A DNA stretch of 64,000 bases, taken from Lachnospiraceae bacterium. GTDB taxonomy: Bacteria; Bacillota; Clostridia; Lachnospirales; Lachnospiraceae. The first letter of the stretch is position 1. Every line of letters begins with the position of its first letter. Positions 9,710 through 11,001 of the stretch are shown in pieces. The stretch covers positions 17,275-81,274 of the forward strand of contig JAGAPK010000060.1 in assembly GCA_017623295.1 (NCBI GenBank), given 5' to 3'. Position numbers and translations under genes: made by a program. The notes beneath the pieces are model-generated. The model saw only the letters and a list, made by a program, of their open reading frames with translations, was not told where the DNA came from and did not search any database.

Positions 9710-9738
9710 TTGACAAGTAGGAAAAGTAGGAGTATTAT
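9710..9738 (+). promoter_or_regulatory. Promoter of the poly-Cys leader and cysK
   Basis: TTGACA at 9710-9715 and TATTAT at 9733-9738, 17-base spacer. Transcription should start near 9745, giving a leader of about 170 nt before cysK. No T-box motif and no S-box is visible in that leader. Confidence 0.85.
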
Positions 9739-9781
9739 CAATTCATACAAAACCTACAAGAACAATATGAAATAAGAAAGG

Positions 9782-9893
9782 AGCAACACAAATGAAAAAG
9801 AAAAATGGAATTTTATGTAAAGTGGCAAAGGATGGAAAGAATGTCATGTGTTGCTGCTGTATGATGATAAAATGAAACAGAAAATAATAGCAA
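9782..9893 (+). promoter_or_regulatory. Candidate cysteine attenuator: mutually exclusive pairings
   Basis: Segment 9782-9790 (AGCAACACA, between the leader's Shine-Dalgarno and its ATG) is perfectly complementary to 9847-9855 (TGTGTTGCT), which is the start of the Cys codon run. Part of the same run can instead pair downstream: TTGCT 9851-9855 with AGCAA 9889-9893 and CTGT 9857-9860 with ACAG 9877-9880, a stem ending five bases before the cysK Shine-Dalgarno at 9898-9904. A ribosome stalled on the Cys codons would block both pairings. The complementarity is seen; the regulatory role is inferred and no folding was computed. Confidence 0.5.
9792..9875 (+). CDS. Poly-cysteine leader peptide upstream of cysK (27 aa)
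   Basis: A 27-codon ORF starting MKKK and ending MCCCCMMIK, with four consecutive Cys codons (TGT TGC TGC TGT, 9849-9860) plus one Cys at residue 9. AAAGGAG at 9777-9783 lies eight bases before the ATG, an ideal ribosome binding site. The TGA stop overlaps an ATG at 9872 (ATGA) that is in frame with cysK, so coupled re-initiation would be possible. Poly-Cys leader ORFs that act as cysteine-responsive attenuators are known from mycobacteria; I know of no description in Clostridia. The peptide is probably not functional itself; its translation rate is the signal. Confidence 0.75.
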
Positions 9894-9913
9894 ATTTAAA
9901 GGAGATTAAAATC

Positions 9914-10855
9914 ATGGCAAATATTAAAAAAAGCGCAACAGAGTTAATTGGAAAAACACCTTTATTAGAGGTTACAAATTATGAGAAAGCAAATCAGATT
10001 ACAGATGCAACTATTTTAGTAAAACTGGAATACTTAAATCCGGCAGGTTCCGTTAAGGATCGTATTGCACTGAATATGATTGAGGATGCAGAGAAAAAAG
10101 GTGTTTTGAAACCAGGAGCAACTATTATTGAGCCGACTTCCGGAAATACCGGAATTGGTCTTGCAGCCGTAGCAGCAGCAAAAGGCTATCGTGCAATCTT
10201 GACACTTCCGGAGACAATGAGTGTGGAGAGAAGAAAACTTTTGCAGGCATATGGAGCAGAGCTGGTGCTGACTGAAGGCGCAAAAGGAATGAAAGGAGCT
10301 ATTGCTAAGGCAGAAGAAATTAAGGAAGCAACACCTGGCTCAGTCATCTTAGGACAGTTCGTAAATCCAGCCAATCCGGAAATTCATAAAGCAACAACAG
10401 GACCTGAAATCTGGCAGGATACAGATGGTAAAGTAGATATTTTTGTGGCAGGTGTTGGTACTGGCGGAACCGTTACTGGTGTCGGTGAGTATCTGAAAGA
10501 ACAAAATCCAAATGTTAAGATTGTAGCAGTAGAACCGGAAAGCAGCCCTGTTTTATCAGGCGGACAGCCGGGAGCTCATAAAATCCAGGGTATCGGAGCT
10601 GGTTTTGTACCGGATGTATTAAATACAGGTATTTATGATGAAATTATCAAAGTATCCAATGAAGATGCTTTTGCGGCAGGCAGAGAGATTGCGGTAAGAG
10701 AAGGTGTATTAGTCGGAATTTCTTCCGGTGCAGCACTTCATGCAGCAACGCAGCTTGCAAAGCGTCCTGAAAATAAAGGAAAAACGATTGTAGCGCTTTT
10801 GCCGGATTCCGGTGACCGTTATTTATCTACCCCATTATTTTCCATTGAGTCTTAA
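9914..10855 (+). CDS. cysK: Cysteine synthase A (O-acetylserine sulfhydrylase)
   Basis: PLP enzyme that makes L-cysteine from O-acetylserine and sulfide, 313 aa. The PLP lysine is K48 in NPAGSVKDR; the substrate loop TSGNTG (75-80) and the phosphate-binding GVGTGGT segment near 180 are intact, and GISSG-type and [11 protein letters not shown] motifs close the protein. ATG 9914 has AAAGGAG nine bases upstream. The same frame is open upstream through ATG 9872 and GTG 9848, overlapping the leader peptide, so a 14-residue longer form is possible. Regulation by the poly-Cys leader is proposed. The methionine-type ABC importer follows, giving a sulfur amino acid block. Confidence 0.96.
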
Positions 10856-10889: not shown

Positions 10890-10918
10890 TTGACAAGAAT
10901 GGCAATTTGTAATAAAGT
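10890..10918 (+). promoter_or_regulatory. Promoter of metNIQ
   Basis: TTGACA at 10890-10895 with TAAAGT at 10913-10918 (17-base spacer); TAATAA at 10910 is an alternative -10. Confidence 0.65.
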
Positions 10919-10937
10919 GGACACGATTAAGATGTAA

Positions 10938-11001
10938 GGAAAGAGCCTAATTTGCGCAGGTGCATGATGCTCATGTGCCTGCATTTTGTTTTAGTCTTTC
11001 C
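10938..11001 (+). promoter_or_regulatory. Structured 5' leader RNA of metN, class unknown
   Basis: Three coaxial helices can form: 10938-10944 with 10995-11001 (GGAAAGA/TCTTTCC, 7 bp), 10947-10950 with 10991-10994 (CTAA/TTAG), and 10956-10967 with 10971-10982 (12 bp, two G-T pairs, loop TGC). An asymmetric internal loop (TTTGC opposite ATTTTGTT) lies between. The 3' strand TCTTTCC lies next to GAAAGAAAGGA, the metN Shine-Dalgarno, and could alternatively pair with it. It lacks the S-box and T-box landmarks. The inner stem followed by a T-rich strand could also act as an attenuator. Confidence 0.5.

What the first reader, a model, noticed from the sequence alone, without database searches (positions are those of the whole stretch)
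9782..9913. Poly-cysteine leader peptide: candidate cysteine-sensing attenuator for cysK
Seen: 27-codon ORF (9792-9875) with ideal ribosome binding site and four consecutive Cys codons, placed between a good promoter and cysK. Its TGA overlaps an ATG (9872) in the cysK frame. The Cys-codon segment is exactly complementary (9 bases) to the leader's own initiation region and partly to a site five bases before the cysK ribosome binding site. No T-box is present. Known: poly-Cys leaders control cysteine genes in mycobacteria. Inference: ribosome stalling when charged tRNA-Cys is low exposes cysK. I know of no clostridial example, so this may be new.
Basis: partly seen in the sequence, partly recalled or inferred. 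Interest (0 to 1): 0.88.

Follow-up and report, generated by a model that had tools for sequence, protein, structure and literature searches.

The report
Poly-cysteine leader peptide before cysK
A tiny gene with four cysteine codons in a row sits just before a cysteine-making gene in a gut bacterium; related bacteria carry similar leaders built as cysteine-sensing switches, but this copy lacks the switch's usual stop signal, so how it works is open.

Summary
A 27-codon ORF (9792-9875) with a good Shine-Dalgarno (SD) and four tandem Cys codons lies between a strong promoter and cysK.

It is not chance. In 227 non-redundant cysK upstream regions, Cys-dense SD-preceded ORFs occur in 13, against 0.04 in shuffles. 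One relative (G030) keeps a homologous leader, with both arms of the Cys-run:SD pairing identical while the ORF between them diverged. A closer relative (G024) lacks it.

Ten of 17 leader-bearing cysK loci have a terminator after the leader. Sixteen aligned copies show the anatomy of a classical attenuator with covariation. They precede cysK, metN or metQ, and DUF2292 genes. The window's own genome holds a full copy elsewhere.

Most likely it is a Cys-tRNA-sensing leader, akin to these attenuators, acting without termination (possibly by mRNA protection). A vestige is the main rival. Cysteine leaders are in print for Actinobacteria and Rhodobacterales; nine searches of a partial library showed none in Clostridia.

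The parts
9710..9738 (+). promoter TTGACA-17-TATTAT
   Evidence: 11 of 12 consensus; kept in G030 and G024
9753..9768 (+). degenerate copy of an inverted repeat (CCTA...TAGG) seen after the -10 box in many genus members; CymR/Rrf2 operator-like, a label that is recalled, not tested
   Evidence: pattern found in 57 of 212 leader-less and 8 of 17 leader-bearing cysK upstreams, 3.25 of 229 in plain base shuffles; in L038, L156 and L205 the match runs over the -35 box; no match in the window
9777..9783 (+). Shine-Dalgarno of the leader (AAAGGAG)
   Evidence: sequence
9782..9790 (+). 5' arm of the pairing with the Cys run (AGCAACACA)
   Evidence: 9-bp exact complement of 9847-9855; identical in G030
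9792..9875 (+). leader [30 protein letters not shown]
   Evidence: homologous ORF in G030 with an in-frame 12-nt indel
9849..9860 (+). four tandem Cys codons TGT TGC TGC TGT
   Evidence: same codons in G030
9847..9855 (+). 3' arm of the pairing (TGTGTTGCT)
9857..9880 (+). short hairpin CTGT 9857-9860 / ACAG 9877-9880, where the family's first hairpin (CTGTAT...ATACGG or ATACAG) would lie
   Evidence: predicted in the fold; equivalence is inferred from position
9898..9904 (+). Shine-Dalgarno of cysK (AAAGGAG); no terminator found between leader and cysK
9914..10855 (+). cysK, cysteine synthase (PALP family)
   Evidence: PF00291 E=4e-80
10890..10982 (+). promoter (10890-10918) and terminator-like hairpin (10956-10982) before metN; in G030 a second Cys leader lies between the two, here it is missing

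Best explanation
The ORF is a cysteine-codon leader that lets a shortage of charged tRNA-Cys stall a ribosome in the 5' leader of cysK and raise cysK expression. It is a terminator-less relative of the Cys-codon transcription attenuators that precede cysteine genes in its family (Lachnospiraceae, judged from the labels of the nearest named loci). Shown: the ORF, its conservation with G030, the excess of Cys leaders before cysK, and covarying attenuator structures in other members. Inferred: that the window leader is translated, that it responds to cysteine, that it shares descent with the attenuators, and the route. The route I think likeliest is neither termination nor exposure of the cysK SD: a ribosome stalled on the Cys run would hold open the helix that otherwise closes the leader's own SD, keep ribosomes loaded near the 5' end, and so protect the mRNA from decay. 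I give that particular route about one chance in four.
For: Cys-dense leaders in 13 of 227 cysK upstreams against 0.04 expected. G030 homologue: 18 of 18 bases of the two 9-nt arms identical against 37 of 52 aligned bases between them, Fisher p=0.008; with the longer identical blocks, whose ends I chose after seeing the alignment, 38 of 38, p=1e-4; 12-nt in-frame indel; two-fold codons of cysK are identical in only 61 of 86. Terminator within -150 to -15 of cysK in 10 of 17 leader-bearing loci against 13 of 210 others. Covariation in 16 aligned attenuators: 11 of 18 pairs with changes on both sides, 0 of 500 shuffles as high; complementarity of the intervening stretch to the terminator better than the shuffle mean in 15 of 16, combined z -5.9, rows not independent. 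The window's own genome has a full copy at G000:C66 (E=2.7e-16) before a DUF2292 gene. The window leader shares the 20-mer ATGTGTTGCTGCTGTATGAT with the full attenuator in L313. The SD:Cys-run helix is the main predicted structure.
Against: No terminator or antiterminator in the window. The family model gives only a 7.3-bit match (E=6.1) on the window's Cys run. The cysK SD is not predicted to be masked. G024, closer to G000 than G030 is (cysK 90% against 84%; pairwise identities, no tree), lacks the leader, so it is dispensable there. Of 77 genus genomes only 2 show it. The SD:Cys-run helix stands out from shuffles in only 2 of 16 leaders, the two homologues, and they are identical in both arms, so nothing covaries; Cys codons alone would conserve one arm. 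The mRNA-protection route rests on analogy with erm leaders, where the evidence conflicts (PMC5118997, passages).
Confidence: 0.6

Rival explanations
1. Vestige: the leader is what remains of a transcription attenuator whose terminator was lost; it no longer regulates cysK.
For: No terminator in the window. G024 lacks the leader. The metN attenuator next door is also incomplete in the window: promoter and terminator kept, leader gone, while G030 has all parts. G030's cysK spacer still holds GAATACGGTT, as in the first hairpin of L145 and L285 (read by eye).
Against: SD, frame, Cys run and both arms are kept over a divergence that changed 15 of 52 bases between the arms and added a 12-nt indel.
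Confidence: 0.2
2. One reading: stalling on the Cys codons exposes the cysK ribosome-binding site (translational attenuation).
For: 5-bp complementarity of the Cys run to 9889-9893.
Against: Openness of the cysK SD changes little between free RNA and the stalled-ribosome masks tried; in G030 the spacer before cysK is about 60 nt longer and different.
Confidence: 0.08
3. A small Cys-rich functional protein (for example metal-binding) that happens to precede cysK.
For: Intact ORF with a good SD; Cys run conserved in G030.
Against: Peptides vary freely outside the Cys run; no Pfam family for 3 leaders tried and no significant NCBIfam family for 8.
Confidence: 0.05
4. Chance ORF.
For: Seen in only 2 of 77 genus genomes.
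Against: Excess of Cys leaders before cysK and conservation in G030.
Confidence: 0.03

Closest known systems
Polycysteine leaders of cys genes in Mycobacterium and other Actinobacteria (PMC1262725, abstract and passages; Canestrari et al. 2020, seen only as cited in PMC9094748 and PMC13236596, paper not held)
   Same: Short ORF with a run of Cys codons near its stop, before cysteine genes, without a conserved terminator.
   Different: The M. smegmatis ones are leaderless by their title; this one has an SD, lies in Clostridia, and has terminator-bearing relatives.
uORFC-8-2 motif before cysS in Rhodobacterales (PMC8632094, passages)
   Same: Tandem Cys codons, two stems and a U run; same logic as the full copies found here.
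   Different: Different gene and phylum; the window copy has no terminator.
Histidine leader attenuators in Bacilli and Eubacteriales (PMC2965389 and PMC9413887, passages)
   Same: Amino-acid leader peptides with terminator and antiterminator in Firmicutes.
   Different: His codons and his genes.
erm-type leader peptides (PMC5118997, passages)
   Same: Short leader near the 5' end; mRNA stabilisation by stalling has been proposed.
   Different: Triggered by antibiotics; masking of the main gene's SD, not predicted here.

Membership tests
Ribosome-mediated transcription attenuator (trp/his type) | leader ORF with SD and tandem codons for the amino acid that the downstream gene makes | tested here: met
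Ribosome-mediated transcription attenuator (trp/his type) | intrinsic terminator between leader and gene | tested here: not met
   none found in the window; present in 10 of 17 leader-bearing cysK loci and in the window's own genome at C66
Ribosome-mediated transcription attenuator (trp/his type) | antiterminator that competes with the terminator | tested here: not met
   no terminator to compete with in the window; in other copies the complementarity beats the shuffle mean in 15 of 16, but only 4 of 10 reached p<0.05
Ribosome-mediated transcription attenuator (trp/his type) | expression rises on starvation for the amino acid | not testable with these tools
   needs expression data
Cys attenuators described here (model R1) | significant match to the covariance model | tested here: not met
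   7.3 bits, E=6.1, on the Cys run of L001 with filters off
Polycysteine leaders of Actinobacteria | Cys run near the stop, no conserved terminator, before a cysteine gene | tested here: met
Polycysteine leaders of Actinobacteria | leaderless start at the mRNA 5' end (M. smegmatis type) | tested here: not met
   SD present; start of transcription inferred about 45 nt upstream from the promoter match, not measured
erm-type translational attenuator | hairpin masking the SD of the main gene, opened by stalling | tested here: not met
   prediction only
T-box | match to the Rfam T-box model at the gathering score | tested here: not met

The most novel reading that the evidence does not exclude
Lachnospiraceae run a cysteine regulon (cysK, metN/metQ, DUF2292 genes) by Cys-codon leaders with classical terminator/antiterminator switches, which would need a ribosome close behind RNA polymerase; tRNA-Cys genes lie beside these switches and may share the control; and in the window clade the cysK copy has become a terminator-free switch in which the Cys codons also close the leader's own SD.
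Probability: 0.3. Interest if true: 0.75.

Novelty: new member of a known kind. Interest (0 to 1): 0.55.

Why it matters
In Firmicutes amino-acid supply is mostly read by T-boxes (passage in PMC1262725), and in B. subtilis RNA polymerase is reported to outrun the ribosome (passage in PMC9226507), which should weaken ribosome-mediated transcription attenuation. A recurrent set of cysteine attenuators in Lachnospiraceae makes it testable whether transcription and translation are coupled in these gut bacteria. The window copy, with the leader kept and the terminator gone, is a natural experiment in what a leader peptide does without a terminator.

Tried and rejected
Rho-dependent termination: the 169-nt leader region holds only 15 C and the untranslated gap before cysK is short; judged unlikely, not tested further. 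Reinitiation at the ATGA overlap (9872): not kept in G030, no SD seen before it. Masking of the cysK SD: not predicted. A general SD:Cys-run helix: only G000 and G030 of 16 leaders pass. Equilibrium folding as a test of the antiterminator: the terminator keeps 0.75 or more in all but one of the 30 states, so I used complementarity against shuffles, 4 of 10 loci reached p<0.05 (L145, L154, L200, L214), L151 and L158 did not, and L039, L041, L205, L241 showed nothing with the segment tried. Homologous leaders in the genera of G211 (2 genomes) and G260 (3 genomes): none beyond the queries. CM matches without a Cys leader, taken as false: L290, L293-L307, L310-L312, L316; L291 has the terminator before cysK but no Cys in the leader. 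The 17 leader-bearing loci were picked by eye and include looser cases (L038, L156, L200, L214, L241); L066 was left out. CymR: 131-residue parts of two Rrf2 proteins of G000 score 130.5 and 117.2 bits, below the curated CymR cut-off of 195, so no assignment. tRNA-Cys as part of the attenuated transcript: weakened, see the report.

Full report
Observation. No T-box reaches Rfam's gathering score and no terminator was found between the leader and cysK.

Is it more than chance? Of these 239 loci 238 had usable upstream sequence, 229 were non-redundant and 227 had at least 150 nt. Cys-dense SD-preceded ORFs occur in 13 of 227 against 0.04 expected, CCC in 8 against 0.07; Ile and Leu runs come next with 4 each against 1.4 and 1.3, Ala 3 against 0.22. 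So Cys leaders before cysK are a real, recurrent feature, in a minority of loci.

Relatives of the window copy. A DNA search of the 77 genus genomes held (10 candidates scored in each) finds an alignment over the Cys run only in G000 and G030. G030 encodes MKKRNGTISRAICKTITDRKDVMCCCCRG. Between the two, the 9-nt arms are identical (18 of 18 bases) while the ORF between the arm blocks has 15 differences in 52 aligned bases and a 12-nt indel that keeps the frame; Fisher p=0.008, or 1e-4 with longer blocks chosen after the fact. G024, closer to G000 by pairwise cysK identity (90% against 84%; no tree was built), has no leader: its single SD leads straight into cysK. The simplest history is a leader in the common ancestor and a loss in G024.

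The wider family. A terminator lies within -150 to -15 of cysK in 10 of 17 leader-bearing loci against 13 of 210 others; some of the 13 look like terminators of the gene upstream. Six alignable copies gave a covariance model. In 397 family genomes it matches 48 at E up to 0.05, in 55 rows. I read 32 of the 55 rows (L278-L307, L313, L316): 14 have a Cys-codon leader, six of them the seeds; one (L291) has the terminator before cysK without Cys in the leader; 17 have no Cys leader and are taken as false, among them all ten read between E=0.003 and 0.009. The other 23 rows were not read. The genus search gave six matches: L283 again, L308 and L309 (alike over the stretch printed) with a Cys leader, and L310-L312 without. 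The nine distinct new copies precede cysK (L285, L292), DUF2292 genes (L283, L313), metN (L286), metQ (L287), an ABC ATPase (L288), a family-5 solute-binding protein (L289) and a GST-like ORF (L308, judged by eye) (the DUF2292 of L313 by eye). On 16 aligned copies (seeds included, alignment fitted to the structure) the first hairpin and the terminator show changes on both sides in 11 of 18 pairs, 0 of 500 shuffles as high, slid controls far lower. The stretch between them is complementary to the terminator above the shuffle mean in 15 of 16, 5 of 16 with p<0.05 alone. Cys codons just before a first hairpin, an antiterminator strand that overlaps the end of the leader ORF, and a terminator: this is the anatomy of a trp/his-type attenuator.

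The window's own genome. The strongest non-seed match is G000:C66:25354-25476 (E=2.7e-16): leader MKNYKVSTICKSFVCCCKAVCMNTVYFSYALCT, terminator, then DUF2292, tRNA-Cys, a JAB-domain gene and a ThiS-ThiF gene on the same strand. So the organism carries the full device elsewhere.

tRNA-Cys. Of 15 tRNA genes found in 139 cysK loci with flanks (some may share a genome), 10 are tRNA-Cys, all just downstream of cysK; three of ten model loci scanned also hold one. Against a common switch: when I folded the stretch before the tRNA in six of these loci, all six had a strong hairpin and in five (L283, L158, L285, L291, L042) it ends in a T run like a terminator (the scan does not report the one of L283, its loop settings may exclude it). 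The tRNA may therefore be outside the attenuated transcript.

What the window copy does. The main predicted structure is the helix between the Cys run and the leader's own SD; the openness of the cysK SD hardly changes with a ribosome on the Cys codons. That helix stands out only in G000 and G030 of 16 leaders. I favour a Cys-sensing leader acting without termination, perhaps by keeping ribosomes on the 5' end and protecting the mRNA; this step is inference. A vestige is the main rival. The metN attenuator next door is incomplete in the window (terminator kept, leader gone) and has all parts in G030.

What is known. Cys leaders are in print for Actinobacteria (PMC1262725, abstract and passages) and for cysS in Rhodobacterales (PMC8632094, passages); His leaders for Bacilli and Eubacteriales (PMC2965389, PMC9413887, passages). 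Nine searches of the held open-access library, read as listings with passages of nine papers, showed no Cys leader in Clostridia; most subscription journals are missing, so this is weak evidence of novelty. Rfam has no family at the leaders in the window and 20 loci, Pfam none for three leader peptides, NCBIfam none below E=0.5 for eight.

Noticed in passing
L046, L051, L052, L056, L063-L067, L070-L072, L079, L080, L083-L085, L089, L091, L092, L097, L098, L100, L146, L167, L221, upstream of cysK: A second leader type: very short ORFs with Arg-Cys near the end (MFKRC*, MKRC*, MIIVKHERC*...RCC, LRCRRC) carrying CGATGT(T/C)G; the motif is in 26 of 227 cysK upstreams against 0.76 in shuffles (largest 3), 24 of the 26 with an in-frame ATG. 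Several have a single Cys codon right before the stop. L146 and L167 are also in the poly-Cys set.
   Followed up: partly
L042, L043, L048, L049, L148, L154, L158, L160, L161, L163; L283, L285, L291: tRNA-Cys genes just downstream of cysK or of DUF2292, with a strong hairpin between (six loci folded).
   Followed up: partly
window 10890-10982: Promoter and terminator before metN match G030's metN attenuator, but the Cys leader between them is missing in the window.
   Followed up: yes
window 9753-9768 and cysK upstreams of the genus: An inverted repeat CCTA...TAGG in 65 of 229 cysK upstreams (3.25 in base shuffles; at least three matches overlap a -35 box); its right half is changed in the window clade.
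   Followed up: partly
L162, L163, L048: Terminators like those of the family (GCAGTTGCC...GGTAACTGC) before cysK without any Cys leader that I could see.
   Followed up: no
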